A DNA stretch of 64,000 nt from Liolophura sinensis (Eukaryota; Mollusca; Polyplacophora; Chitonida; Chitonidae), in the NCBI RefSeq assembly GCF_032854445.1, contig NC_088302.1, positions 39,686,191 to 39,750,190 of the forward strand. The letters run 5' to 3'. The notes under the pieces were generated by a model. It was given only the letters and a program-made list of their open reading frames with translations. It had not been told where the DNA came from and ran no database searches. Below, one piece after another: positions 11,180 through 29,085 of this stretch. Numbering within the stretch: the stretch's first letter is position 1; each line of letters opens with the position of its first letter. The translations under genes were made by a program, and so were the position numbers.

Positions 11180-11285
11180 TCAACCAGATTGAGGTATCAG
11201 GCCGTATTTATCCGGCTGGAAGAAGTGGGTGCGAATGTTGTTAACAACGTCTTTTAACTCTTCCTCAGCCTCATGGCGTTCCAGT
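11180..11285 (-). CDS. PGM2: PGM2 coding exon 19 (stop codon)
   Basis: Residues 566-600: [17 protein letters not shown], then [15 protein letters not shown] and TGA. Human PGM2 ends in a similar HFFQPQKYNL. Acceptor TTATTTGCAG. Confidence 0.94.
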
Positions 11286-14200
11286 CTGCAAATAAAATCA
11301 AGTTATTCCATATCATTCCACTTGATTTTACATGGACTACAGTAGAAAAAAGTTGCCAAACAGAATGAAATTTATCATCATCATAAAAAAAAATATAATG
11401 AGTCACAAAATAATCAAAATGATCTGTCACACTTTTCAAAGTAGCATTAATGACAAGGTACATAAACATGCTTTGGGTTTTCCCTTGTGCTAACAATTTT
11501 TAGGTCATATGACGGCATTAGTGACAATGTTCTTTATAACACTTAAGCTTTTACCAAAAACATATGGACAATGTTCTTAACCTGCTGTGGGATCTACACA
11601 ATATTCTCAGTTATACTTGACCTTTTACCTCTATTATCAGGGGAAACATCAGCTTACCCTGCTGTGAGATCTACACAATATTCTGTGTTATACTTGACCT
11701 TTTACCACTATTATCAGGGGACACATCAGCTTACCCTGCTGTGGGATCTACACAATATTCTGTGTTATACTTGACCTTTTACCACTATGATCAGGGGACA
11801 CATCAGCTTACTCTGCTGTGGGATCTACACAATATTCTGTGTTATACTTGACCTTTAACGCCTTTCATCAGAGTTCATATCAGCTTACTCTGCTGTGGGA
11901 TCTACACAATATTCTCTGTTATACTTGACCTTTAACGCCTTTCATCAGAGTTCATATCAGCTTACTCTGCTGTGGGATCTACACAATATTCTGTGTTATA
12001 CTTGACCTTTTACCACTATGATCAGGGGACACATCAGCTTACCATGCTGTGGGATCTACACAATATTCTGTGTTATACTTGACCTTTTACCACTATGATC
12101 AGGGACACATCAGCTTACCCTCCTGTGAGATCTACACAATATTCTCTGTTATACTTGACCTTTTACCACTATGATCAGAGACACATCAGCTTACCATGCT
12201 GTGGGATCTACACAATATTCTGTGTTATACTTGACCTTTTACCACTATGATCAGGGACACATCAGCTTACCATGCTGTGAGATCCACACAATATTCTGTG
12301 TTATACTTGACCTTTTACCTCTATTATCAGGGGACACATCAGCTTACTCTGCTGTGGGATCTACACAATATTCTGTGTTATACTTGACCTTTTACCACTA
12401 TGATCAGGGGACACATCAGCTTACCATGCTGTGGGATCTACACAATATTCTGTGTTATACTTGACCTTTTACCACTATGATCAGGGACACATCAGCTTAC
12501 CCTCCTGTGAGATCTACACAATATTCTCTGTTATACTTGACCTTTTACCACTATGATCAGGGGACACATCAGCTTACCCTGCTGTGAGATCTACACAATA
12601 TTCTGTGTTATACTTGACCTTTTACCTCTATTATCAGGGGACACATCAGCTTACTCTGCTGTGGGATCTACACAATATTCTGTGTTATTGACCTTTTACC
12701 ACTATGATCAGGGGACACATCAGCTTACCCTGCTGTGGGATCTACACAATATTCTGTGTTATACTTGACCTTTTACCACTATGATCAGGGGACACATCAG
12801 CTTACCCTGCTGTGGGATCTACACAATATTCTCTGTTATACTTGACCTTTTACCACTATGATCAGGGGACACATCAGCTTACCCTGCTGTGGGATCTACA
12901 CAATATTCTGTGTTATACTTGACCTTTTACCTCTATTATCAGGGGACACATCAGCTTACCCTGCTGTGGGATCTACACAATATTCTGTGTTATACTTGAC
13001 CTTTTACCACTATGATCAGGGGACACATCAGCTTACCCTGCTGTGGGATCTACACAATATTCTGTGTTATACTTGACCTTTTACCACTATGATCAGAGAC
13101 ACATCAGCTTACCATGCTGTGGGATCTACACAATATTCTGTGTTATACTTGACCTTTAACGCCTTTCATCAGAGTTCATATCAGCTTACTCTGCTGTGGG
13201 ATCTACACAATATTCTCTGTTATACTTGACCTTTAACGCCTTTCATCAGAGTTCATATCAGCTTACTCTGCTGTGGGATCTACACAATATTCTGTGTTAT
13301 ACTTGACCTTTACCACTATGATCAGGGGACACATCAGCTTACCCTGCTGTGGGATCTACACAATATTCTGTGTTATACTTGACCTTTACCACTATGATCA
13401 GGGGACACATCAGCTTACCCTGCTGTGGGATCTACACAATATTCTGTGTTATACTTGACCTTTTACCACTATGATCAGGGGACACATCAGCTTACCATGC
13501 TGTGGGATCTACACAATATTCTGTGTTATACTTGACCTTTTACCACTATGATCAGGGGACACATCAGCTTACCCTCCTGTGAGATCTACACAATATTCTC
13601 TGTTATACTTGACCTTTTACCACTATGACCAGGGGACACATCAGCTTACCCTGCTGTGGGATCTACACAATATTCTGTGTTATACTTGACCTTTTACCAC
13701 TATGATCAGAGACACATCAGCTTACCATGCTATGGGATCTACACAATATTCTGTGTTATACTTGACCTTTAACGCCTTTCATCAGAGTTCATATCAGCTT
13801 ACTCTGCTGTGGGATCTACACAATATTCTCTGTTATACTTGACCTTTAACGCCTTTCATCAGAGTTCATATCAGCTTACTCTGCTGTGGGATCTACACAA
13901 TATTCTGTGTTATACTTGACCTTTTACCACTATGATCAGGGGACACATCAGCTTACCATGCTGTGGGATCTACACAATATTCTGTGTTATACTTGACCTT
14001 TTACCACTATGATCAGGGACACATCAGCTTACCCTCCTGTGAGATCTACACAATATTCTCTGTTATACTTGACCTTTTACCACTATGATCAGAGACACAT
14101 CAGCTTACCCTGCTGTGGGATCTACACAATATTCTGTGTTATACTTGACCTTTACCACTATGATCAGGGGACACATCAGCTTACCATGCTGTGGGATCTA

Positions 14201-17200
14201 CACAATATTCTGTGTTATACTTGACCTTTTACCACTATGATCAGGGGACACATCAGCTTACCATACTGTGGGATCTACACGATATTCTGTGTTATACTTG
14301 ACCTTTTACCACTATGATCAGGGACACATCAGCTTACCCTGCTGTGGGATCTACACAATATTCTGTGTTATACTTGACCTTTTACCACTATGATCAGGGG
14401 ACACATCAGCTTACCCTGCTGTGGGATCTACACAATATTCTGTGTTATACTTGACCTTTTACCACTATGATCAAGGGACACATCAGCTTACCCTGCTGTG
14501 GGATCTACACAATACTCCGTGTAATATTTGATCTTGGGCTCAGTACCACTGGTTCTCAGTGTGGCCACACAACCATTCTTAAAAGTGAACGTGATCATCT
14601 GACTTGAACTCACAGGTAATCTCTTGAAAATAAAATGAAAACATTATCATTGAGCATTATATATAGATAATGCTGTGTTAGAATCTGATAACAGCAAGTG
14701 ACAGATGATTGTGAAGCTACAGTGACTCTGGAATGAGCCATTTACTTCTGTTGGAGCTGAACTTGGAACTGTCACATTACAGAAAAAATTGTTGGCAAAG
14801 TGAGGCAAACCAGATCAGCAAAAACCATGTGGTGTCTGATAATGTGCACTATATATGTGCAGCAGGTATATGTAATGATGTATGTTCACTTGACGTAATA
14901 AAAAAAGCGTTATAACTGAGAATAAAAAAAACTGTTGAGAAAGATTGAGAAAAAGAGCCAATTCTTTGTGTAAAAGTGCATAACAGTGAAGTTAAACTTA
15001 CTGGCTTGCAGTCTGAAAAGCTGTTGTCATAACCTGTTGTCAAGTCTCTCACATACTTGATCTCATAAGGGCCACAAGATGATGGATACTGGAAATACAA
15101 TTCCATACAGAATTACATGTACTAGTAACATCAACAGATCATTTAAATTTTTTTTTTCAAAAACAATATATCATTGCATGAGAATTGTGTATTAAAATGT
15201 TCCTGCCTCTGCAGTGCAGAATTAGACATGAAGGTAAAAACCTTGTTGCCCGAGTCTGACAAGTGGAATCATGAAAGTTAGAAATGTCGACAAATTCATT
15301 TCAAATTTTCACTTTCAGTCTAGTTAAATCTGGTAATTACCTCCTGTTTTTAGGAATGCAAGCATTTGAAAGTATGTGTGAAAAATATAACTATCACAAA
15401 GCTGGGAGCGAAAATACAAATTTATTGAAAAAGTTTAAAATTCCATGAATTTAATTTTTTGAATGTCTTGGCATGAATGGCATTTATCTGCCTTGGCAAC
15501 TGAACTTTTCATATGTACATGTATAATTAATATATATCAACACAATATGAATGATGTTGAAATCTCGAATGACAGTGAAACAGATAAATTACCTCTTTAG
15601 AGTCTTTGTAGTTGCGAAGATTGTCAAACAGCTGCTTTATTGTCTCTTGCTCGTGGCAAATAAAGTAGGAGTTACTCGACAAATGGAAACCGTACCTGAT
15701 GGAAGAATAAAAACATGTTATTCATGAATATAACTCAACATTATTTGAAGAGTGGGGCCTCCATGGATGAAGTGGTTAGCACGCCAGAGCCGCGCAATGA
15801 CCCAGGAGCCTCTCACCAAAGCAGTCGCAGCTCCTGTTGGCTTCCTCTCGGCCCGTACGTGGGAAGGTTTGGCAGCAACCCGCAGATCGTCGTGAGTTTC
15901 CCCCGGGCTGTGCCCGATTTCCTTCCGCCATAATTCTGTGGTATAAGTGAAATATTCTTGAGTACGGCATAAAACACCAATAAAATAAATAAATAAATAT
16001 TTCAAGAGGTAAGGCAAACAGAAAATTACATGTACCTGCTGCAAAGGGAATCAGACAGCTATATGCTGTACAAGCAATCAGCCAGTTCTCTGTTCTAAGG
16101 GCAATCAAACAGCTATGTGTTTTACAGGCAATCAAACAGCTATGTGCTGTACAGGCAATCAGACAGGTATATGCTGTACAAGCAATCAGCCAGTTCTCTG
16201 TTCTAAGGGCAATCAAACAGCTATGTGCTTTACAGGCAATCAAACAGCTATGTGCTGTACAGGCAATCAGACAGCTATGTGCTGTACTAGCAATCAGACA
16301 GCTATGTGCTGTACAGGCACCAGACAGTTCTCTGTTGTAATGTAATCAGACAGCTATGTGCTGTACAGGCAATCAGACAGCTATGTGCTGTACATGCAAT
16401 CAGCCCGTTTCCTGTTGTAAGGGCAATCAGACAGCTATGTGCTGTACAAGTAAACAGCCAGTCTCTACTGTAAAGGCAATCAAACAGCTATGTGCTGTAC
16501 AGGCAATCAGGCAGCTCTCTCTTGTCGGGGCAATCAGACAACTATGTGCTGTACACGCAAACAACCAGGTCTCTATTGTAAAGGCAATCAGACAGGTGTG
16601 TGCTGTACAGGCAATCCGCCAGGTCTATGTTGTAAGGGCAATCAGACAGCTACATGTATGCACTGTACAATAAATAAGCCATGTCTCTGTTGTAAGGGCA
16701 ATCAGGTAGCTATGTGACATACAGGCAATCAGCCAATTCTCCATTGTAAAGGTAATCACATAGCTATGCACCATCTCCTTTGTAAGGGCAATCAGACACC
16801 TATGTGCTGTACAGGCTACAGCCAGTTCTCTGTTGTAACGGCAATCAGACAGCTATGTGCTGTACAAGCAAACAGCCAGGCCTCTATTATAAAGGCAATC
16901 AGACAGCTATGTGCCGTACAGGCAATCAGCCAGCTACGTGCTGTACAGGCCATCAGCCAGTTCTCTGTTGTAAGGGCAATCAGACAGCTATGTGCTGTAC
17001 AGGCAATCAGGCAGTTCTCTCTTGTCAAGACAATCAGACGGCTATGTGCTATACATGCATTCAGACAATTCTCTGTTGTAAAGGCAATCAGACACCTCTC
17101 TGCTGTAAATCATGAATATCTAGCCAGTTCCTTGAAAGGTTCAACATGTGATGTACATGTACAGATTTACTCGCCACCCTGTTGTTTCTTTACCAACTTA

Positions 17201-17991
17201 AACTGAACAAATGACCCTCATGAAACGCGCAGACTGCTCCCTGACCAAGGCCGGATTTGAACCCCATCCCTGTGTGTCGTGGATGGTAGTCACATACATA
17301 TTCCTTACCACTGAACCTCCTATGCCTATGAAATCAAGATGCTGTGGATAAGCTTACCACTTACTTCTGATAGACATTGTCTAGTTGTTTGGTGAGAGTT
17401 ATCTTCTCTTTAGCATAGAGATACGAGGCCATTTCAGCCATAGCACACAATGCGCTCACTCCGTCTTTGTCCAGGACCTTTGTACCACACATAAAACCTG
17501 AAATATCAAATAGCACAGGTATGACCAGGTGGACCTTTTTTCAAAAGCAGAAATGAAAAGAATGATTTGGTCTAAATTTGAACACTGTTCAAATATGAAA
17601 CAACAAAGGAAAAAAAATCGTTAGAAAGTGCAAAACCATCTCCCTCAGATGAAACCATATAAATAACAGCATTTTGCGTACCAAAATTTGCACTTTTTCA
17701 GAATAGAATTCAGTCACTTATATTTATTTAAGTTCTGAATGGGTTTTATGGAGTATATTGGGAGGTTTTGGTCTGATGAAATCATAACTTTTTTCTTGCC
17801 AGAACCAAGCACTTCGGTTTATCCTAGAAAATCACCCTCTATTGTATGTGACGGTGAAGGTAACATGTATGGTGTGGAAGTACATGTATTCTGTTAACAC
17901 ATGTAGGTGGTCTTTAGATCTAATACTATTTGTATGGTCAGTGTAGATTAGTATTAAATTCAAATACTTGATTTCCTCTGATGAAGAACAA

Positions 17992-18046
<55 letters not shown>

Positions 18047-21000
18047 TAGAAATAAATGGAAAGATATTCACATGTTGTAAGGTTCCTAACTATCCATCTG
18101 ATTATGAATACTTAAAGAAAACAAAAATTCTCACCAATAGCTTCCTCGAAGGCGAACAAAACAGTTTTCTTTGACTCTTCTAACTCATCTGCCCTGTTTC
18201 CCATCCATTTAAAACCTGTCAGCGTTTCCTGAATAAAGAAAGGATTTCATTTTTATTTCAGATTTATGGTGAATCCAAGATTTTGTACCCTTGATATAAT
18301 GGCGTGACTAAATTACTAAAGAATCACCTGTTACCTGTTGAGCTAGTGTAGTGTGATTGGAAGTATCAGGAAAATTGCTTTAGTATTGCACTTGGCCATT
18401 TAAAACAAAAGTCTGGCTAAAAATGAACTGAAATTATGCCGGGTGTAGTATCTACTGTATTAATATGTTTTAAGTGTTTTATGCTTACAGACTCTTCCCA
18501 TCTTAAAATGATTCAGATGAAATGCTTAAGTAAACATTTAGGATTTGGCAAAATACTACCTGATGCAAAACACAACAGCCTTTTCTTTAAGTATTCATAA
18601 TCAGACTTGAGTGAACAGTGTACATGGTTAAATCAACAGGGACGAACTCCTTCAAACTTGAACAGCTTACTTCAAAGTTGAAGCCTTCCTTTTTGGCTAT
18701 TGCCCCTAATATCTTGGAAGAGACAGTGCTCGCCAACATGTACACATCAGAACCTGTAAAAAGATGCAAAGATATACATGTACAATGTAAAGAATGAATG
18801 AATATCGAAATACAGCTGTCTTCCAGATCCTACACTAGCACAATCTTGATGAAAATTCACCGGAGTTGTTTCTACCCAAATCTGAAATAACAAAAACTGG
18901 CAACAAATTGTGCTGGGTTTGCAGATTATTTACTTGGCAACAGTCCAAGCTGGGTTTGCACATCATTTTACCTATTTATTTCATAACTCGATCTACACTT
19001 AGAATATTTTAGAAGTGGAGGAAATTTGAGTACAAATTTGCACACAACAGGGTTGAATAGTGAATGCGTGGGAATCAGTGAAAAGTCTAGGACTTGAACT
19101 CGCATAGACAAGTTTCTTAACAACCCAGCCATAAAACATTCCCCAGTTTGCGTGTTATATTCCTTGGAAAGTAGGGTTACATGGAAAAAGCAGATGTGCC
19201 TGAAATATTGACAAACAGTTACAGAAAATTTTTTAAGAGACTTGATAAAGCAAATGCACCACAAAGGTACACACTACACACAATACCTGTTGTATTGGGA
19301 TTCTTGTGTTTGAATGAAAACCAGGCCCACCAACCAAACAAGGCTCCAAGCTCATTGCCAGTGAAGATTTTCCACTCCCCACTAAAAAGTAAAAACAGTA
19401 TACATACGAATAAACAAGAAATATACAATATTTCATCACACACAATCATATTTCAACAAATTTAAAATTTACTCCTATTGTCTTGAAACATGGGTAAGCT
19501 TTGGTTTGTCCTTTCATACCTCTCTTTTAATACAAAATGCCAAAACATTAACTGTCATCATTCTGCTTTGCATAAGGAATGAATGAATGATTATGGCTTA
19601 ATAATGCATTGGTAATATTTCACCTAAGCTTTGCGCAGGGTTTCCTTTCTCTGTAAAAGCTTCTGAGTAAAACACTAATCAAATAAATAATAAAAACCTC
19701 TGACACAGAACAGGAATGGTTCTCCCTTTTATCACAACATAATGGTTCATACTTGACTTTCTCAGCCACAGCAAGTCTGTCGGCATCTGGGTCGTTAGCA
19801 AGTATAACAGGGCTGCCTGCTTCATCAGCTGTTTTCATCGCCAGTAACTATAACAACAAAGAAAACTTGTGTATTTAACTCGCAGTCCCACAGTTTCATT
19901 CACCACAGAAAAACAGTTCACACATATCTATTTTTCAAACAATTCTTCACTGCACTTATTGATGTGAAAAAAACAAAAAAGCAAAAAATAGATCTGAACT
20001 ATTTAAAGAGCCCGGGGAAAGCCCACAGCTATCTGCAGGTTGTTGCCAGACCTTCCCACGTATGGCCGGAGAGGAAGCCAGCATTTGCTGGACTTGAACT
20101 CATAGCAACCGCATTGGTGAGAGGCTCCTGGGTCATTACGCTGCGCTAGTGCGCTAACCAACTGAGCCACGGAGGCCCGCATAAAGTTTTGAAAATGTAA
20201 TTTTTGTTGTCCTGGGCTCTGCCCAGTTACCTCCCATAGTAATACTGGCCGTCGTCGTATAAGGGAAATATTCTTAAGTACAGCGTAAAACGCAAATCAA
20301 ATAAATAAATAAATACATAATTTTTATGTTTTAATGCTGTATTTTAGAACTTAATTGTGAATACACACAAAATGTTACAATATATGTTAGAACAAATGCG
20401 TCACTGTTATACAGTGATGAGACTAAATCTAGAACATTTTCCAGAAACTTTTTGGATCAAAAGATTATAAATTATAAATTTCACATTTACATGTTGACTT
20501 TATTAGCCAGAAATCTGGCTGATGAATTGAAAAGCAGACACTAACCAGAGCTCCTTTACCCTCCTCTGGGTTGGGATACTTCACTGTGGGAAATTCAGGG
20601 TCCGGTTCCACCTGGGTGTGAAGAGAGAAAACAATCAATCAATCGCAAAAGTTTTGTTATATTCACAAAGACATACATGTACACCTCTAGCTCTTTACGT
20701 CCATACTAGCTTCATTACAGTATGTGATTCAACATAACATAAATGAAACACAGGGGGCCTCCATGGTTTGGTTGGTTAGCATGCTAGCGCAGCGTAATGA
20801 CCTCTCCCCAATGCGGTCGCTCTGTGAGTTCAAGTCTAGCACATGTTGGCTTCCTGTCCAGCCGTACGTGGGAAGGTCTGTCAGCAGCCTGCAGATGGTC
20901 GTGGGTTTCCCCTGGGCGCTGCCTGGTTCCCACCCACCACAATGTTGGCTGCCGTTGTATGAGTGAAATATTCTTGGGTATGGTGTAAAACATTAATCAA

Positions 21001-24000
21001 ATAAATAAATAAATATATGAAACATGAAAATAAATTTGTCATCAAGTTGTTTTTGCAGACGTCTGTAAATACTTTACATCATCTTAAAAGATTCTGAAAG
21101 TTATGATATTGTGTTAATCGGTTTACAATTAATAACCCTCTTACCTATGCCACACTTTTTCTATCAATGGCAAATGATCTTCATAAAAGTTATAAGTTAC
21201 AATATGCTAAGCAGATATGACTTGTAATGAGGGAATGGCGTTCATAAATTCTACATTTCTCAATTCAGCTGATATGTGAGTATTTCGCCAAAGTAAAACA
21301 AAAAAACTGACATGGATGGTCAAGGTAATTATCTCTCTTAGAGCTTGTACCGATTCATTTCCTGCGAAGCACGTTGCTTAAACTCTGCTCAGAGGCCAGT
21401 GAGGGATGGGTTGAGATTTCTGGCCCTTATCAACAGGAGGATTTGAACAATTGGCCAGCACAGATAATCTTTACAGTAAGTGCAGAAAATACCACTCAGA
21501 ACTACTGTTTTTCACCTAAAGTTTAGCATTTTCAAGTGATGCAATTTGTTTGATTCTGATAGACACATTTACCTTATCGGGCTACTTACATGTAATAGGT
21601 TTTTGTGAAGACTGATTAATTTCTTACGAGAAAATCGTCTGACAGTGTTGGCATGAAAAGTATCATTTTAAAACTTTATGTGCTTCTGAAAGAACATTTT
21701 TACATGCTAAACTTTAGGTGAAATACTGAATTCAGTTTCATTACCTGTTCTTTCACAGGTACAGGCTCAGAGAAGCTGAATGCTTTCATCGCCACTTTGA
21801 CGTATTCGTATCCCACACCGTGCATGGCTGTGTAGGTGAATTTGATTGGGCAGTCACTCCCCGAAGAGCTGTGAAATAGATAAACCAAGTAATCAAAGGA
21901 GTTTGAAATGCCTGAAATGAACATAAGTCTGCCATTATATTATACGTACACTGAACCAAAAAAGTAAGTCACATGCAAATAAAAATATTTTAAAAATTCC
22001 ATTGTTTCAAAAGCCAACAATATGGAATTCAACACTGAGGCTATGGCCCTAACGAATAATTCACTCTGAGTAACAACGTTGTAGAAGCTCTACAGGTTAG
22101 ACATGCGCAATTCAGGCAATGATTTATACCTAAAGCAAATGAGCTCTTTGACATCTTTGTTGTAAGAAACGAGGGTCTCTTGGAGAGGATCAGATCTGAG
22201 AGGAGAGGTATCCACAATGTCAGTATTCCAGGATGACGCCCAGGGCTCCAGGTTGGCTAGGATTTGATCAGAGATATGCTGGTCTACAGGGGAGATAATC
22301 TGGAACAATATGCATTAGCAGGTTTTTCAGACTTCGAGGTTTGTCACTAATTCAACAAGCACTTTTAATTCATGTATAAAAATGTAAAAACTAAATTTTT
22401 ATTTAACTTGACATTTTTAAATCTTAATTCTGACTTTTTAATCTCATAATCAAATTTCATAATGTTAAATTAAAATGTAAATTTCATTTTAAATTTTGGT
22501 ATGATTTTGAATTTTGTCTTAATTTAATTTTAGCGTTAATTTTTATTTCGCTTTCAATGTTCACAATCAACCTTCTTTAGCTATCTGTTACAGTACATAT
22601 GTATGATGTTCCGTCAATTTTAGTTGCTAAAATGACCACCAGCATACCTGTGCGCCATTTCTCCCATACACCTGAAATGGAAAACACAAAAATTAGTTTA
22701 GGCCATGGAAAAAGTAGCAAAATACTTATCAACAAAATCGACAAAATAACAGATTGAAAGAACCTACATTCGGCAAATACCAAATATGACTGGTACATGA
22801 TCCAACAGTTTTAGAAATATGTCCAAGTTTCAACCTGAATCCAAAGATATTGAAAAAAAAAAGCATAAACCAGTTCTTTTAAACTTGGGATCTTGAATTA
22901 TACACCAAGATTGTTTCTTTGAGTTGGGCATAGATACTTGAATTATAATTTCAATATACATGACTCGAGATCCATTTTTTTTCAGTAAAAAAAATCTCTG
23001 TATCCCAATATCTGAAAGCAGCTTTTAGCTCATAGATCATTAAACTGTTATGTGTAAACATGTGTATATGACTGCCAACGCGTGTGTGACAAAATCGTGA
23101 TTGTGTTGTGTTGTGGGAGGAAGTCGGCTGAATGCTTGCAAATCAGTATAGTATCACTGTGTAAGCCTGTAAATAAATAAATAAATATGTTTGACTAGAA
23201 AACACCATTTCTAAGTAATTGTTGGCTGTGAGAAGCGGCGTTGGGTAGTAGCACATGTTGTTCATTCGTTGTTGTTGTTCATTCATGGTGCAGTCGTGGT
23301 GCCCATTAAGGTGCCACGGTGTGCTCTTGTAGGGCTATTGACAGTCAAAAAAGCAAAAAATATACAGCTGTCTAAAATAAATAGCGTATCCCTTTGGCAC
23401 CAGGTTTGATTCATTTTTAAAATATCGGAAGGCAGTTGTATGTGGGCTAAAACAGTTCTTGCAACAACCAGAGAATTTATGGAAGATATTAAGAGCTGTA
23501 ATTGCAAACGATAAGGTGTGCAGATCTATAAATATGTGGCAAAGTTATCCACATGTAATCATTCAGTTTGTTGCTCGTACCCACCGCCGATTTGCTCATG
23601 TCCGTATACAAGTGATTGCATGAACATTTTTCAGGTCAATTTTGTGGGATAAAGACGTAAGTATAAATAAACAGGAGACTTTTTCATGTACCATATGGAA
23701 CTCTGATAAAGAATAATTTCACCTTGACATATCACCTTCATTGAGAACTTTGATCACCTCTGCAGGTATCTGAATGTGAAACTCCATGCAGTAATGAGCT
23801 AATTTTCTAGTCAAACAATTTGAAATGATTCCGTTTGGTTCGGGTTGCATGATTCCATGCCGCATTTAGACCCACCTATACATAATTCTATGTAAAATTC
23901 GAGATAAGCCTATATTGGTGTTTTCTTCACTTATTGATTTTAGACCTATATTACAACACAGGCAGCTACATATAGCTACACGCACACAATTTGCCTTGGG

Positions 24001-27000
24001 TGTTTAATTGAATTTGTCCCATATACATATATAGAAGTGAATTATTATCACCGGTTTGTCAGCATGCATAAATTTGGCCTACATCATGTATTTCCCCTAA
24101 CCCATTATGTTTACATGTTTGCGTTTTCCCATAGTTGGACAACCCCTTTTGGAACCTCAACTCATAAAGTCCCTGGATTGCTATAGTATCTATACTTGAT
24201 GAAAGGATAAGGGGCGTCGCCACCTGTTTAGGTGTAGTTCAACTTGGAACAGTGACACCACCATACCACAAGCTACACATATGCACAAGACAACTGATGA
24301 TACATCAGAAATGAAGAGAATATGTTTGAGCAATCAATTCTTCAGTATCTTAAGGCAGTAAGCCGACTGCTGTTTGAAACAACAACAACAACATGACAAA
24401 CATACCACACGGGTATTATTTATTTATTAATTTGACTGGCGTTTTACGCCGTACTCCAGAATATTTCACTTATAAAACGACAGCCAGCATTTTGGTGGAA
24501 GGAAACCGGGGACATATATTCTTATATCTATAATATTTTTATTACACAGATATACCTTGTAACCATTGTCCTCTTTAGGGTTGTGTGATGCTGTCACCAT
24601 CACTCCACATACACCCTGGAATTTCCTAACTCCATAAGCCTGCAGAGAGACAAACAGAGAGATATAGAAATCTTACAGCTAAAAACTGTGTATTCTGTAT
24701 TGTATTCATTATGTTAGGTAGGGTAAGTCTCTAAAGTAAACACAACAACTCACACTGTATACACATTTGTGATAGAATCAAATTAAAACAATGTGACCCA
24801 TGTGGATTAAGGGAGATCACTCCATCTGACAAGCACTAGGATTAAGCTACCATTGCTTCTTACTTACATCAAGTCACAATGAACGAACATAACTTATTTG
24901 TTTGTTTATTTAATTCTTTTTGTTTCTGAAGATAATAATCAAATACAGCATTTATATGTAATTTTTCTTGCTTCTTGGAATGTAGAAAACTGGGCCCAGT
25001 TATCATACATTTGTCGTTCGATATTTTGTGTGTCACTACCACCATATCATTGTCCTATATGTGTGATTTTTGTACACGTACGACACCTTTGTGAAACAGG
25101 TCCCAGGGTCCAAGATGATATGGATTTGTGAGATGGATTTGTGAGATAAATAGTGAAATATGAGCGACAAACACCATCTTTCTTATGCTTGAAGCACTTA
25201 TTAGCAGAGAACAGTGCACTAAACATTGTTGTAGTTCTCAGTCCTTTGGCTTAGTGGCTCACATGACCGAAATCCTTACAACATCGAACTAGAACGAGAA
25301 TGTCCTTATAGCACTAGCTGCGCATTTATAATGACGTCGGTAAAACCTTACCACATATGGTGTGGGACAGAGGTTTGAGAACAGGTACACCTTCACTCCA
25401 GCATGCATAAATATTGCTGCTGTCAACCAGGCAAATCTGGAAACAAAAACCACAAAGAAAACATAACCTTTAAGTCTGACACAACAATATTTAACATTCA
25501 GGTATCAAAGTGCATATCTGACCTCAATTCAAATGTGCTTCTGCAAAAAATGGCGAGAATTTTTAACATGAATACAGCTTTACCTTCTGCTGCTATGTCA
25601 TCAACAAGAATACAGCTTTATGTTCTGCTGTTGTGTCATCAACAAGAATACAGCTTTATCTTCTGCTGTTGTCATCAACAAGAATACAGTTTTACCTTCT
25701 GCTATTGTGTCATCAACAAGAATACAGTTTTACCTTCTGCTGTTGTGTCATCAACAAGAATACAGCTTTACCTCCTGCTGTTGTGTCATTAACAAGAATA
25801 CAGTTTTACCTTCTGCTGTTGTGTCATCAACAAGAATACAGCTTTACCTTCTGCTATTGTGTCATCAACAAGAATACAGCTTTACCTTCTGCTGTTGTGT
25901 CATCAACAAGAATACAGTTTTACCTTCTGCTGTTGTCATCAACAATACAGCTTTACCTTCTGCTGTTGTCATCAACAAGAATACAGTTTTACCTTCTGCT
26001 GATGTGTCATCAACAAGAATACAGCTTTACCTTCTGCTGATGTGTCATCAACAAGAATACAGCTTTATCTTCTGCTATTGTGTCATCAACAAGAACACAG
26101 CTATACCTTCTGCTATTGTGTCATCAACAAGAAAACAGCTTTACCTTCTGCTAATGTGTCATCAACAAGAATACAGCTTTACCTTCTGTTATTATGTCAT
26201 TAACAAGAATACAGTTTTACCTTCTGCTGTTGTGTCATCAACAAGAATACAGCTTTACCTTCTGCTGTTGTCGTCAACAAGAATACAGTTTTACCTTCTG
26301 CTGTTGTGTCATCAACAAGAATACAGCTTTACCTTCTGCTGTTGTGTCATCAACAAGAATACAGCTTTATCTTCTGCTATTGTGTCATCAACAAGAATAC
26401 AGCTTTACCTTCTGCTGTTGTCATCAACAAAAATACAGTTTTACCTTCTGCTGTTGTGTCATCAACAAGAATACAGCTTTATCTTCTGCTATTGTGTCAT
26501 CAACAAGAATACAGCTTTACCTTCTGCTATTGTGTCATCAACAAGAATACAGCTTCACCTTCTGCTGTTGTGTCATCAACAAGAATACAGTTTTACCTTC
26601 TGCTGTTGTCATCAACAAGAATACAGCTTTATCTTCTGCTGTTGTGTCATCAACAAGAATACAGTTTTACCTTCTGCTGTTGTGTCATCAACAAGAATAC
26701 AGTTTTACCTTCTGCTGTTGTGTCATCAACAAGAATACAGCTTTACCTTCTGCTGTTGTCATCAACAAGAATACAGTTTTACCTTCTGCTGTTGTGTCAT
26801 CAACAAGAATACAGTTTTACCTTCTGCTATTGTCTCATCAACAAGAATACAGCTATACCTTCTGCTATTGTGTCATCAACAAGAATACAGCTTTACCTTC
26901 TGCTGTTGTCATCAACAAGAATACAGCTTTTCCTTCTGCTGTTGTATCATCAACAAGAATACAGCTTTACCTTCTGCTATTGTGCCATCAACAAGAATAC

Positions 27001-29085
27001 AGCTTTACCTTCTGCTGTTGTCATCAACAAGAATACAATTTAACTTTCTGCTGTTGTGTCATCAACAAGAATACAGCTTTACCTTCTGCTATTGTGTCAT
27101 CAACAAGAATACAGCTTTATCTTCTGCTGTTGTGTCATCAACAAGAGTACAGCTTTACCTTCTGCTGTTGTGTCTGCCATCAAAGCCAACGACCACCCCA
27201 CGTTCTTTTAGGTCTGAGCAAGCTGACTCTAGGTATTTCAACAATCCCTGAGGATGAAGACATCAAACAGAAATTGAAAAAATATCCTCACCCATCACAA
27301 CATATATTTATTATCTATTTATCTGATTGTTGCTGGAAGCTGTGCTCATGAATATTTTACTTATGCGACAGTGGCCAGCATTATGGTGCAGGGGCCAACA
27401 CATGACACAATTCACACGTATGACAGGACAGAAAGCCAGAATAAGCTGGATCTCAATTTATGAGCAGATAGTTAATTCATGATTTGCCAGGATCTGAGAA
27501 GACATTTAACTGCATTATGCTTGACAGAAAATTCCAGAAATTTCATACTTCTTAACTGAACCTTGAGGGTAATATGAACCAAAACTTATTGGTGTGTCTC
27601 TCAGAGAATCATCAATGAACACTGTAAATTCTTGACTTCAATACCTGGGTGGTCTGTATAATGGTTAGGTCATTCATCATGGAAAAACCGGTACCCATTC
27701 GAGCCCTCAAACCTGAGAACAGAGGAAAAACTTTGGCATGCACCATAACTTGGGCTTGTCATTTGCTACGACCATGGAAATATTAAAACATAAAAACAAA
27801 ATAAAAAATCCTTGAGTTTACATAGTTTACTTATTTGACAGTTTTTTTAATGCTATATTGAAGACTTTTTTTGACTGATGACATCCAGTTTCATGGGAGA
27901 AGCAACATTTGGCAAGTTATAAACCATCCCACAGCTGATGTACAGACATGCACAACATACTGGAGAAAGATGTGGTCTTCAGGTGTCGATCCACCGCTTA
28001 TTGCCACCCAGGCCTTATGAACTGTGAGAGTGGGTTGAATCTGCACACTGTTTGAGCGTGTCCTGGTTGACAAACCACATCTCTTGCTGGTCCGATTGAA
28101 ACCATCTTAACCAACTGGTCAAGGTCCGCTCCCAAGCACATCATTTAATCAGGGTGGTTAGTGTGCCAGTGCGACGCAATGACCATGAGCCTCTCACCAA
28201 TGCGGTCGATGTGAATTCAAGTCCATCTCATGCTGGCTTCCTCTCCAGCTGTACAAGGAAAGGTCTGCCAGCAATCTGCAGATGGTTGTGGGTTTCCCAC
28301 GGGCTATGTCTGGTTTACTGATGCTGATGTATAAGTGAAATATTCTGGGGTACAGCATAAAACACCAATCAATGAAATCATCAATTAATAACAATTCTCA
28401 AGAAAGATTTCAGTTTGACCTGCTCTTCTGTACCTGCTGTTCCAAACTCCATTCTTGCTGATAACCTTTTCTTTAGCTCTTCTTTATTCCCTGATGCTTT
28501 CAAGTTAGATATTTCCTCTCTACTTTTTTCATTCTGTAACGAGAAAATTCAAGAATCAGTCAAAAGTACTATCGTAATATGAGTAACAAGCAACATGTAA
28601 AGTTGCATTACAATCATATTTTAATACCTCAAGATCACTGATGCCAGACATATGTCAACACGTTTGAGTTGGTAACGCTAGTCATATATGTAGCTTTTCT
28701 GATATGGACTTAAAATAATAATTCTGATATTTTCTGACAGGAAATTGACCAAAGTCCGCCTTGAAGGTGGATGGCATCAAGATCAAGCACAGTGTCAGTT
28801 CAAAGAAGCTAAACTTTATGCCTTGTTAATTATGACAAGAGAACACAGTATCCTTTCATTTTATGTCTGAAGTGTCAGGTTCTTTTCTACCATATCCATT
28901 CAACTTGACAAACTGACTACAAGACACAATGTCAGGAAAATAAAATTGGGAAATCGTTGGTTATCATGTTTTGTTGTTGTTGTTATAGGTGGCGATGCCG
29001 TCCCTCGATCTCAACTCACTTTATCCCAGTCCAGCCAATTTTTGACTTTGCTTTCAAGGTCTTTATCTTCTTGAGGGGATCCCAT
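11180..29085 (-). CDS. PGM2: PGM2-family phosphopentomutase/phosphoglucomutase, complete gene, 19 coding exons
   Basis: Cytosolic alpha-D-phosphohexomutase-family enzyme. Vertebrate PGM2 interconverts ribose/deoxyribose-1-P and -5-P and, less well, glucose-1-P and -6-P. I traced coding exons by splice sites and protein similarity: 29020-29085, 28434-28533, 27645-27712, 27159-27247, 25352-25436, 24556-24639, 22648-22671, 22130-22299, 21745-21868, 20546-20611, 19753-19847, 19287-19381, 18671-18753, 18135-18228, 17365-17497, 15593-15695, 15002-15088, 14492-14622, 11180-11285. They sum to 1803 nt, all phases close, giving 600 residues (human PGM2 612). Landmarks: FDGRHNSRR near 100-108, catalytic loop TASHNP with Ser154, metal loop DPDADR at 311-316, sugar loop [11 protein letters not shown] from 332, EEAIG at 411-415, phosphate-binding RTSGTEPK at 545-552. 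All catalytic motifs are intact. Invertebrates often have one gene for the PGM2/PGM2L1 pair, so glucose-1,6-bisphosphate synthase activity cannot be excluded. Introns 4 and 18 are filled with donor-site minisatellites. Confidence 0.95.
11535..14535 (-). repeat. 77-bp minisatellite A: amplified exon-18/5' splice-site junction
   Basis: About 39 tandem copies of a ~75-77-bp unit fill nearly all of PGM2 intron 18. On the minus strand each unit reads as a diverged copy of the last ~44 bases of exon 18 ([15 protein letters not shown] region), then GTAAGCTGATGTG and ~20 bases of intron. The last unit (14492-14535) is the real exon end, so the array begins at the exon/intron junction. The GTAAGCTGAT donor core is kept in essentially all copies. 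Two subtypes occur: the common 'accactatgatcagggg' form, and an 'aacgcctttcatcagagtt' form found as pairs near 11860-11960, 13155-13250 and 13770-13870. About 250 bp separate the array from the exon 19 acceptor. Confidence 0.95.
14492..14622 (-). CDS. PGM2: PGM2 coding exon 18 (phosphate-binding loop)
   Basis: Residues 523-566. Holds [14 protein letters not shown] and [12 protein letters not shown], the phosphate-binding loop of domain 4. Acceptor TTTTCAAG, donor GG|GTAAGC, phase 2. Its last ~44 coding bases, together with the donor, are the parent of the 77-bp minisatellite filling intron 18 (11535-14535). Confidence 0.94.
15002..15088 (-). CDS. PGM2: PGM2 coding exon 17
   Basis: Residues 494-522: [20 protein letters not shown] followed by [17 protein letters not shown] is the family hallmark opening domain 4. 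Acceptor TTTCCAG, donor CCA|GTAAGT. Confidence 0.94.
15593..15695 (-). CDS. PGM2: PGM2 coding exon 16
   Basis: Residues 459-493: [20 protein letters not shown] and LFDNLRNY. Acceptor CATCAG, donor AAAGAG|GTAATT. Confidence 0.93.
15754..15999 (+). mobile_element. tRNA-derived SINE, near full length
   Basis: Head 'ggggcctccatggatgaagt', 'ggttagcacg' (box A) and box-B region, a conserved centre 'cgtacgtgggaaggtttggc', then 'ataagtgaaatattcttgag', 'cggcataaaacacc' and an (AAAT)n tail. It lies in PGM2 intron 15. The centre resembles the conserved-domain SINEs of molluscs; the exact named family was not determined. Confidence 0.85.
16040..17112. repeat. 27-bp minisatellite in PGM2 intron 15
   Basis: About 39 copies of two alternating flavours, 'caatcagacagctatgtgct' + 'gtacagg' and 'caatcagccagttctctgtt' + 'gtaaggg'. 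As 27 is a multiple of three, plus-strand frames read a nine-residue C-T-G-N-Q-T-A-M-C motif. This is intronic, antisense to PGM2, and not a gene. Confidence 0.93.
17228..17335 (-). mobile_element. tRNA-like SINE head
   Basis: On the minus strand, 'aggaggttcagtggtaag' (box A) and 'ggggttcaaatccggc' (box B) are ~55 bp apart, as in tRNA-derived promoters. No intact cloverleaf or tail was found. It lies 30 bp from PGM2 exon 15. Confidence 0.45.
17365..17497 (-). CDS. PGM2: PGM2 coding exon 15
   Basis: Residues 415-459: [20 protein letters not shown], then an alpha-helical stretch ending NVYQ. Acceptor ATATTTCAG, donor CAGAA|GTAAGT, ends phase 2. Confidence 0.93.
17991..18050. repeat. Compound (TA)n(GATA)n microsatellite
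   Basis: (AT)n followed by about six GATA repeats, in PGM2 intron 14. Confidence 0.95.
18135..18228 (-). CDS. PGM2: PGM2 coding exon 14
   Basis: Residues 384-415: [16 protein letters not shown] and LFAFEEAIG, which holds the conserved glutamate pair of the sugar loop. Acceptor TTATTCAG, donor ATTG|GTGAGA, ends phase 1. Confidence 0.94.
18671..18753 (-). CDS. PGM2: PGM2 coding exon 13
   Basis: Residues 356-383: [20 protein letters not shown] then EGFNFE. Acceptor TTTTACAG, donor TTTGAA|GTAAGC. Confidence 0.93.
19287..19381 (-). CDS. PGM2: PGM2 coding exon 12 (sugar-binding loop)
   Basis: Residues 324-356: [18 protein letters not shown], the substrate-specificity loop. Acceptor CTTTTTAG, donor ACAACAG|GTATTG, ends phase 1. 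Confidence 0.93.
19753..19847 (-). CDS. PGM2: PGM2 coding exon 11 (metal-binding loop)
   Basis: Residues 293-324. Contains [17 protein letters not shown]; Asp311, Asp313 and Asp315 bind the catalytic Mg2+. The donor is taken as GTCAA|GTATGA because it joins exon 12 to give AEKVNGEW (human AEKQDSGEW). Confidence 0.93.
20011..20180 (-). mobile_element. SINE, head and centre, minus orientation
   Basis: On the minus strand it starts 'gcgggcctccgtggctcagt', with tRNA-like 'ttggttagcgcac' and 'gagttcaagtcc', then the conserved centre. The 3' tail is absent; a plus-oriented tail from the same family begins 31 bp away at 20211. Intron 10 of PGM2. Confidence 0.8.
20211..20316 (+). mobile_element. SINE 3' half, plus orientation
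   Basis: 'cctgggctctgcccagttac' followed by 'gtataagggaaatattctta', 'gcgtaaaacgc' and an (AAAT)n tail. Head missing. Paired head-to-head with the minus copy at 20011-20180. Confidence 0.8.
20546..20611 (-). CDS. PGM2: PGM2 coding exon 10
   Basis: Residues 271-292: [20 protein letters not shown], almost identical to the human segment. Acceptor ACACCCAG, donor CTG|GTTAGT, phase 0 at both ends. Confidence 0.94.
20755..21015 (+). mobile_element. tRNA-derived SINE, full length
   Basis: Complete head, centre ('cgtacgtgggaaggtctgtc'), 'gagtgaaatattcttgggta' and (AAAT)n tail, in PGM2 intron 9. Confidence 0.88.
21512..21728. mobile_element. Short inverted-repeat (MITE-like) element, best copy
   Basis: Left end 'tttcacctaaagtttagcat' and right end 'atgctaaactttaggtgaaa' are near-perfect inverted repeats around ~170 bp of non-coding DNA. 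It sits just downstream of PGM2 exon 9, in intron 9. Two diverged relatives are at 33022 and 9080. Confidence 0.7.
21745..21868 (-). CDS. PGM2: PGM2 coding exon 9
   Basis: Residues 229-270 with [15 protein letters not shown], the conserved T-x-x-HGVG motif opening the second domain. Acceptor TTTCACAG, donor GAACAG|GTAATG. Confidence 0.93.
22130..22299 (-). CDS. PGM2: PGM2 coding exon 8
   Basis: Residues 173-229, starting IISPVDQHI and containing NLEPWASSW. Acceptor TTGTTCCAG, donor TTTAG|GTATAA, ends phase 2. Largest exon of the gene (170 nt). Confidence 0.92.
22648..22671 (-). CDS. PGM2: PGM2 coding exon 7, 24-nt microexon
   Basis: Eight codons (VYGRNGAQ) bounded by CATTTCAG and CAG|GTATGC, phase 0 at both ends. 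They fill exactly the gap between NGYK of exon 6 and IISP of exon 8 (human NGYK-VYWDNGAQ-IISP). Without it the loop after the active-site serine would be missing. Confidence 0.9.
24417..24514 (-). mobile_element. SINE 3' fragment
   Basis: Minus-strand tail and 'gtataagtgaaatattct'-like motif plus 'ggcgtaaaacgcc', truncated at the 5' side. PGM2 intron 6. Confidence 0.7.
24556..24639 (-). CDS. PGM2: PGM2 coding exon 6 (catalytic phosphoserine loop)
   Basis: Residues 137-164. Contains [16 protein letters not shown]. Ser154 in TASHNP is the phosphoserine of the mutase reaction. Acceptor CTCTGCAG, donor AAG|GTATAT, phase 0 at both ends. Confidence 0.95.
25352..25436 (-). CDS. PGM2: PGM2 coding exon 5
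   Basis: Residues 108-136: [19 protein letters not shown] then CPTPYV, matching the family's strand before the catalytic loop. Acceptor GTTTCCAG, donor GTG|GTAAGG. Confidence 0.92.
25570..27180 (-). repeat. 36-38-bp minisatellite B: amplified exon-4/5' splice-site junction
   Basis: About 43 tandem copies fill PGM2 intron 4. On the minus strand each unit is GACACAACAGCAGAAG, the 3' end of exon 4, followed by GTAAAGCTGTATTCTTGTTGAT. The copy at 27159-27180 is the genuine exon end, encoding RHNSRR plus donor. Units of 38 and 36 bp differ by 'gt' in ttgtgtcat/ttgtcat. The array ends about 130 bp before the exon 5 acceptor. The unit has no stop in any plus-strand frame, which creates long spurious antisense reading frames (up to 543 codons) that are not genes. 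Confidence 0.95.
27159..27247 (-). CDS. PGM2: PGM2 coding exon 4
   Basis: Residues 79-108, ending [10 protein letters not shown]. Donor AGAAG|GTAAAG, ending phase 2. The final ~24 coding bases and this donor are the sequence amplified in the adjoining intronic minisatellite (25570-27180). The ancestral donor is therefore the first of a long series. Confidence 0.93.
27305..27410 (-). mobile_element. SINE 3' fragment, diverged
   Basis: Minus-strand 'cataagtaaaatattcatga' and 'taatgctggccactgtcg' with an AAAT-type tail. PGM2 intron 3. Confidence 0.55.
27645..27712 (-). CDS. PGM2: PGM2 coding exon 3
   Basis: Residues 56-78. Encodes [18 protein letters not shown]-type sequence, the substrate-facing segment after FGTAG. 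Acceptor TTCTCAG, donor CCCAG|GTATTG, ends phase 0. Confidence 0.92.
28152..28389 (+). mobile_element. tRNA-derived SINE, 5'-shortened
   Basis: 'ggttagtgtgccagtgcgac', 'gcctctcaccaatgcggtcg', 'ataagtgaaatattctgggg', 'cagcataaaacaccaatcaa'. In PGM2 intron 2. Confidence 0.8.
28434..28533 (-). CDS. PGM2: PGM2 coding exon 2
   Basis: Residues 23-56. Contains GNKEEL and ARMEFGTAG, the family signature leading into the first alpha/beta domain. Acceptor GTTACAG, donor GCAG|GTACAG. Starts phase 0, ends phase 1. Confidence 0.92.
29020..29085 (-). CDS. PGM2: PGM2 coding exon 1 (start codon)
   Basis: Encodes residues 1-22, beginning MGSPQEDKD and ending NWLDWDK, which matches the family's W-x-x-WDK N-terminal motif. 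The ATG at 29085 is the first in frame. The donor AAA|GTGAGT is clear, phase 0. Confidence 0.88.

What the first reader, a model, noticed from the sequence alone, without database searches (positions are those of the whole stretch)
11535..27180. Recurrent donor-junction minisatellites in one gene: a possible mode of intron growth
Two independent introns of PGM2 expanded by tandem duplication starting in the coding exon and crossing the 5' splice site. Both parent junctions share the form ACAGCAG(AA)G-GTAA(A)GCTG, so a sequence feature (CAGCAG followed by a GTAAGCTG donor) may predispose to slippage or breakage here. Other arrays in the window (27-, 65-, 16-bp) do not touch exons. Tandem duplication of a splice-site-bearing segment is a proposed route for making new introns; here it seems to enlarge existing ones while preserving function because the first donor still works. 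I know of no described class with this name.
Basis: inference. Interest (0 to 1): 0.9.

Follow-up and report, generated by a model that had tools for sequence, protein, structure and literature searches.

The report
Minisatellites spanning exon-intron junctions in chiton
In a chiton, two introns of a sugar-phosphate enzyme gene consist almost wholly of short repeats that begin inside the coding exon and repeat its splice site dozens of times; the same is seen in a number of its other genes, and it is an already described kind of repeat.

Summary
Two introns of a PGM2-like gene (minus strand; + 11286-14491 and 25437-27158) are 91% and 93% tandem array (77- and 38-bp units), and each array starts in the coding exon and crosses the 5' splice site. 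The genome figures match the published assembly of the chiton Liolophura sinensis. A motif scan found the same arrangement at 15 of 33 donor-motif arrays read (RPTOR, POLR3A, GH31, SMAD, annexin, TRPM, diacylglycerol kinase, PHD, pyruvate-carboxylase-like and others; 10 of the 15 with exon homology at E < 0.01). Acceptor-anchored arrays exist but were rarer (3 of 31). The class is not new: amphioxus 'mirages' are the same structure, and the human ABCA7 intron-18 VNTR is close. The proposed CAGCAG|GTAAGCTG hotspot is not supported: GTAAGCTG sites lie in arrays no more often than other donor k-mers, and CAGGTAAGT no more often than its reverse. Best reading: random tandem duplication in a minisatellite-rich genome that sometimes straddles a donor and is tolerated because the first donor still works; duplication over acceptors is probably purged. 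That donor-over-acceptor asymmetry, by-eye and from small samples, is the part worth following up.

The parts
14492..14622 (-). penultimate coding exon of the PGM2-like gene (upstream limit approximate); its last ~44 bp are the first, partial repeat unit
   Evidence: TRF edge at 14535
11286..14491 (-). intron A, 3206 bp, GTAAGC...TTGCAG, 91% array
11576..14535 (-). array 1, 77/76-bp unit, 38.6 copies, crosses the donor; 38 of 38 register-matched donor copies (the first included) keep GTAAG; the last partial copy reads GGTTAAG
11183..11285 (-). last coding exon, downstream of intron A ([34 protein letters not shown])
27159..27249 (-). coding exon ending HNSRR; its last 16-19 bp are part of the repeat unit
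25437..27158 (-). intron B, 1722 bp, GTAAAG...TTCCAG, 93% array
25565..27174 (-). array 2, 38-bp unit, 42.9 copies, crosses the donor; 29 of 37 register-matched units keep the donor GT
25349..25436 (-). next coding exon ([29 protein letters not shown])

Best explanation
Boundary-spanning minisatellites of the kind called mirages. A short tandem duplication (about 20-80 bp, breakpoints roughly at random) happened to include the end of a coding exon and the start of its intron, then grew by slippage or unequal exchange into the intron. The exon-proximal donor is unchanged, so the normal mRNA is still made; the downstream donor copies are passengers. The genome is full of minisatellites, so many such events are expected. 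Duplications over acceptors, where the copy that must be used is the last and not the first, are probably removed by selection. Shown: anatomy, recurrence, exon origin of the units, equal per-site array rate for one donor 9-mer and its reverse. Inferred: random breakpoints, growth mechanism, use of the first donor, selection at acceptors.
For: Anatomy and coordinates. Recurrence at 15 of 33 donor-motif arrays; exon homology at E < 0.01 for 10: RPTOR 5e-11, POLR3A 6e-9, GH31 3.5e-13 and MH2 3.6e-11, annexin 5e-5, PHD 1.7e-3 and CPSase_L_D2 9.5e-13, TRPM5 1.5e-3, deoC 2.3e-3, DAGK_acc 1.5e-6. A further exon of the same family lies beyond the array for GMC 5e-9, carboxylase 2e-9, GH31 8e-21, MH2 3e-3 and PHD 2.6e-9, positions, so joining the first donor to it fits the protein. 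Per-site array matches: CAGGTAAGT 301/9837 = 3.06%, reverse 158/4862 = 3.25%; distinct arrays 15 v 6 over the same 148 Mb, rate ratio 1.24, P 0.82. Exon share of the unit spans 5-53 bp, KS against uniform P 0.31, n = 14 measured by eye, three anchored cases (L007, L010, L015) left out as unclear. In the three cases with 0-3 bp of intron in the unit, the copied exon start regenerates GTAAG (L016, L045, L048). In array 2 internal donors decay about like the rest of the unit (0.079 v 0.049 non-majority; 11 of 38 windows as variable).
Against: AGGTAAG triples run at 3.6% per site against 1.8% for the reverse, though long arrays dominate these counts. Estimated anchored arrays per real CAGGTAAGT donor, 0.8-1.7%, exceed the neutral guess of 0.4-0.6%, and 8 of 14 CAGGTAAGT arrays v 4 clear of 20 isolated CAGGTAAGT sites are real donors (P 0.04; P 0.49 if 4 uncertain sites count), so a modest donor excess is not excluded. 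Array 1 keeps GTAAG in 38 of 38 units, which fits recent homogenisation but also function. No RNA data were available.
Confidence: 0.7

Rival explanations
1. Donor hotspot: the 5' splice site, through its sequence (CAGCAG, GTAAGCTG) or nascent-RNA/U1/R-loop effects, promotes tandem duplication, so donor-anchored arrays arise more often than chance.
For: Donor-motif arrays are anchored more often than acceptor-motif arrays, 15 of 33 v 3 of 31. 8 of 14 CAGGTAAGT arrays v 4 clear of 20 isolated sites are real donors, P 0.04; all donor sets 15 of 33 v 4 of 20, P 0.08. AGGTAAG array rate is twice its reverse.
Against: CAGGTAAGT and its reverse have equal array rates. GTAAGCTG is not elevated, and the three GGGTAAGCTG arrays fetched are anchored in 0 of 3. 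Counting uncertain isolated sites (8 of 20) removes the difference (P 0.49 and 0.78); in C1:0-3.8 Mb, where the control sites lie, arrays (4 of 11) and single sites do not differ (P 0.41-1.0); elsewhere 11 of 22 v 4 or 8 of 20, P 0.06-0.55.
Confidence: 0.19
2. Functional multi-donor intron: the repeated donors are selected, for example to recruit U1 and suppress premature polyadenylation or to regulate isoform choice.
For: Array 1 keeps GTAAG in 38 of 38 units.
Against: In array 2, 8 of 37 register-matched units have lost GT, and its donor window is not better conserved than the rest of the unit. In both PGM2 introns reading through the donor meets TAA at once (from the sequence), so internal donors would give truncated products.
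Confidence: 0.07
3. Assembly artefact: repeats collapsed or expanded wrongly at these introns.
For: Very long, highly similar arrays are hard to assemble.
Against: The assembly is from PacBio HiFi reads (PMC11068029, passages); units carry many distinct variants in ordered blocks; the pattern recurs in many genes. Copy number may still be off.
Confidence: 0.04

Closest known systems
Mirages of amphioxus (Adh3, globins BflGb6/BflGb9, TnC; PGBD5 compared with them)
   Same: Minisatellite-like tandem duplication of an exon-intron boundary; many units with AG/GT signals; regular splicing reported; both 5' and 3' boundaries affected; Adh3 unit length 10-72 bp
   Different: Reported there gene by gene in a cephalochordate; here a mollusc, in many genes, with arrays filling over 90% of two introns
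Human ABCA7 intron 18 VNTR
   Same: 25-bp unit immediately flanking exon 18 and starting at its donor GT; about 12 to 427 copies; canonical splicing plus an isoform that keeps one unit by using the second copy's donor
   Different: The first two bases of the VNTR are the donor GT, so no exon bases are described in it; one disease-associated locus
[quoted passage not shown] potato RdRp case)
   Same: Tandem duplication of splice-signal-bearing DNA
   Different: There a new intron is made; here existing introns grow and no new intron position was shown

Membership tests
Mirage (exon-intron boundary minisatellite) | tandem repeats whose unit spans an exon-intron boundary | tested here: met
Mirage (exon-intron boundary minisatellite) | splice signals repeated within the units | tested here: met
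   GTAAG in 38 of 38 register-matched units of array 1; GT in 29 of 37 of array 2
Mirage (exon-intron boundary minisatellite) | normal splicing preserved | not testable with these tools
   no RNA; protein continuity across the first donor fits
Mirage (exon-intron boundary minisatellite) | copy-number instability between alleles or somatically | not testable with these tools
   one assembly only
Intron gain by tandem duplication | a new intron position absent from relatives | tested here: inconclusive
   further exon lies beyond non-array intron sequence in the cases followed; no relatives held
Donor hotspot with CAGCAG|GTAAGCTG context | context enriched at arrays | tested here: not met
   GTAAGCTG 445/19455 v CAGGTAAGT 301/9837 and AGGTAAG 3092/86121; the full CAGCAG|GTAAGCTG string was not searched genome-wide

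The most novel reading that the evidence does not exclude
In this chiton about one donor in a hundred carries a boundary-spanning minisatellite while acceptors carry some ten times fewer. The genome would then record the polarity of splice-site choice: repeats are tolerated where the first copy is used (donors) and purged where the last copy would have to be used (acceptors), making exon-anchored minisatellites a main, directional route of intron growth in this lineage.
Probability: 0.35. Interest if true: 0.65.

Novelty: new member of a known kind. Interest (0 to 1): 0.45.

Why it matters
It extends a curiosity known from amphioxus and one human disease locus to a mollusc in which it seems common enough to study in bulk. 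With an annotated genome and RNA-seq it would give many natural tests of how the spliceosome picks one of dozens of near-identical donors, and of whether tandem duplication lengthens introns at one end more than the other.

Tried and rejected
1) A shared predisposing motif (CAGCAG + GTAAGCTG): rejected, see above; none of the 15 further anchored donors has CAGCAG directly before the donor (reading).

2) Phase-2 introns with immediate TAA as a precondition: both PGM2 introns have it, but by my reading the other anchored donors fall in all three phases; dropped.

3) Intron birth: the PHD-finger (L045) unit is all exon sequence with a donor copied from exonic GTAAATTG, which looked like AGGT-type intron gain, but about 1.1 kb of non-array sequence lies between array and the next PHD exon; not pursued.

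4) Dispersed repeat: a 501-bp query from the edge of array 1 has one weak match outside its own locus (57 bp, 82%), so the unit looks local; that search skips very common words.

5) Weak points of the scan. Reversed k-mers are an imperfect background (GTCGAATG contains CpG; TTTTACAGG shows no excess over its reverse). Calls of 'anchored' were made by eye, unblinded, on the motif strand. Single-site controls come only from the start of C1. Match lists stop at the first 100 rows, so distinct-array counts cover part of the genome. On the opposite strand I looked for open frames at the edges of 19 donor-motif and 28 acceptor-motif loci: only L124 (array of L046) suggested an exon, acceptor side, without a Pfam match.

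6) Corrections. A repeat-unit alignment of array 1 had end-gap errors; its donor figures were replaced by exact-match counts. Interim Fisher tests used smaller totals (27, 29, 30) before I reached the edges of L003, L022, L046 and L039 and read an overlooked AGGTAAGCTG array at C1:5178192; the totals given are those. L051 and L053, cut, were re-read. With these changes I moved my confidence in the best explanation from 0.72 to 0.70 and in the hotspot from 0.17 to 0.19.

Full report
What is there. The window lies at G000:C8:39686191-39750190. Its assembly has 632 pieces and a longest piece of 96,433,062 bp, the figures given for the chiton assembly published as Liolophura japonica and later corrected to L. 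sinensis (PMC11068029, passages found by term; PMC12441733, text read). On the minus strand a PGM2-like gene (name recalled; Pfam PGM_PMM_IV E 9.2e-5, PGM_PMM_I E 0.039) has two introns that are 91% and 93% tandem array. In both, the array begins in the coding exon. In array 1 the exon reads [15 protein letters not shown] and the unit [15 protein letters not shown] then stop, about 44 exon bp in a 77-bp unit. In array 2 about 16-19 exon bp and 19 intron bp make a 38-bp unit. By eye the two units are unrelated. Splicing from the first donor to the next exon keeps the PGM2 reading frame (from the sequence; comparison with human PGM2 from recall).

Is it more than chance? Taking 11 arrays and 13 PGM2 donors, 0.11 donor-crossing arrays are expected in the window (P of two or more, 0.006), a figure made after the fact. 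At genome scale two in one gene is not odd: at 0.4-1.7% per donor and 13 donors per gene, tens to hundreds of 28,010 genes would have two.

Genome scan. I searched for three exact copies of a splice-like k-mer spaced 20-50 bp apart and read the exon-side edge of arrays in the lists (first 100 rows each). Donor motifs, 33 arrays: all 8 listed with AGGTAAG, 14 of 15 listed with CAGGTAAGT (the fifteenth is L003, already in the first set), and 11 of 31 listed with GTAAGCTG, chosen for AGGTAAGCTG (8) or GGGTAAGCTG (3) in the unit. In 15 the array starts in or at the end of what reads as a coding exon: 2 of 8, 8 of 14 and 5 of 11. Ten have exon homology at E < 0.01: L007, L012, L014, L015, L021, L022 (edge in L123), L042, L043, L045, L048 (for L043 the top PDB row was an unrelated partial match, Crov588, and TRPM5 the best full one). 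The other five are weaker: L044 (PDB GMC oxidoreductases at E 0.16 or worse, but a GMC_oxred_C exon at 5e-9 downstream), L010 (polycystin E 0.06), L016 (no match; ARFGEF-like by recall), L020 (no Pfam match), L006 (too short to search).

Acceptor motifs, 31 arrays: all 19 listed with TTTCAGG and 12 of 15 listed with TTTTACAGG (one taken from a cluster of four related arrays on C2). Three are acceptor-anchored: L029 GH18 E 3e-10, L040 tetraspanin E 3e-3, and L035 without a match. In L063 the array stops about 18 bp before the acceptor of a likely exon and was not counted. Donor 15 of 33 v acceptor 3 of 31: P 0.002; on homology alone 10 of 33 v 2 of 31: P 0.02; for the pair CAGGTAAGT 8 of 14 v TTTCAGG 3 of 19: P 0.02, on homology P 0.11.

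Hotspot or neutral? The per-site frequency of array matches is CAGGTAAGT 301/9837 (3.06%), its reverse 158/4862 (3.25%); AGGTAAG 3092/86121 (3.59%), reverse 1452/80171 (1.81%); GTAAGCTG 445/19455 (2.29%), reverse 19/8691 (CpG-bearing); TTTCAGG 1143/128055 (0.89%), reverse 703/59658 (1.18%); TTTTACAGG 188/12232 (1.54%), reverse 100/12305 (0.81%). Counted as distinct arrays over the same 148 Mb, CAGGTAAGT has 15 and its reverse 6, rate ratio 1.24, P 0.82.

As a case-control I read 20 of 38 isolated CAGGTAAGT sites and 20 isolated TTTCAGG sites from the lists, all in C1:0-3.8 Mb: 4 clear and 4 uncertain real donors, 4 clear and 2 uncertain real acceptors (Pfam support below 0.01 for 3 donors and 2 acceptors). 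Against these, CAGGTAAGT arrays are anchored more often or not, depending on the uncertain sites (P 0.04 or 0.49); TTTCAGG arrays are not (P 1.0 or 0.45); donor arrays of the same region (4 of 11) do not differ (P 0.41 or 1.0). Nine 10-kb stretches elsewhere hold 7 arrays. From that, with 50-bp units, about 0.4-0.6% of junctions should be crossed by chance. My rough rates are 0.8-1.7% for donors and 0.07-0.10% for acceptors. The asymmetry therefore seems to come at least as much from loss at acceptors as from gain at donors. These are rough: motif subsets, by-eye calls, one control region.

Mechanism. The exon part of the unit runs from 5 to 53 bp, roughly evenly (P 0.31, n = 14), as random breakpoints would give. 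The exons are conserved protein, so the array was copied from the exon into the intron. Where the unit holds almost no intron (L016, L045, L048) the copied exon start regenerates GTAAG, as selection for a working first donor would demand. Downstream stretches of 8 anchored introns were fetched: a further exon of the same family was found in 5 (L045, L048, L014, L021, L044) and in L016 by recall only; none was seen for L012 and L015. Human ABCA7 gives an experimental parallel: a 25-bp VNTR beginning at the exon 18 donor, with canonical splicing and an alternative isoform that keeps one unit by using the next copy's donor (PMC5954066, passages).

Known? Yes. [quoted passage not shown] PMC3902484, passage; the first paper, Canestro 2002, doi 10.1093/nar/gkf386, is not held, and was seen only as cited). 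The globin paper notes that both 5' and 3' boundaries are affected and proposes a route to new introns. The potato RdRp case of intron gain by tandem duplication was seen as abstract (PMC4974935). I found no report for molluscs in the listings, which cover open-licence papers only.

Gene names other than those with a database match are my recall.

Noticed in passing
window 1-64000 and L112-L120: Minisatellite density varies strongly: 11 arrays in the 64-kb window, 7 in 90 kb of spread stretches, and more than one array in several 2-kb pieces near the start of C1.
   Followed up: partly
L045 (G000:C1:80154759-80155959): The 48-bp unit is wholly exonic and stays open in frame over several copies (VSCHCGQNEENGLMIQ), so it could be a coding PHD-finger repeat instead of an intronic array.
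   Followed up: partly
L029, L035, L040: Acceptor-anchored arrays in a GH18 chitinase-like gene, an unplaced ORF and a tetraspanin-like gene: how the last acceptor is chosen is an open question.
   Followed up: no
L124 about 1240-1380 (array of L046), opposite strand: The frame FSLDPFIRHTFWTLTFGAITSS..., which recalls SLC5 transporters to me but has no Pfam match, starts at a CAG inside the array edge: a possible further acceptor-anchored array.
   Followed up: partly
L107 about 636-914 and 839-1057: Two closely similar copies of a GH31 exon (GILNFQLFGIPLAGVDICGF / GILNFQLFGIPLVGADICGF) lie in tandem, perhaps mutually exclusive exons.
   Followed up: no
L010 about 420-440: The exon of the polycystin-like gene seems to end at CAG|GCGAGT, a possible GC donor, while the array copies carry CAG|GTAAGT.
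   Followed up: no
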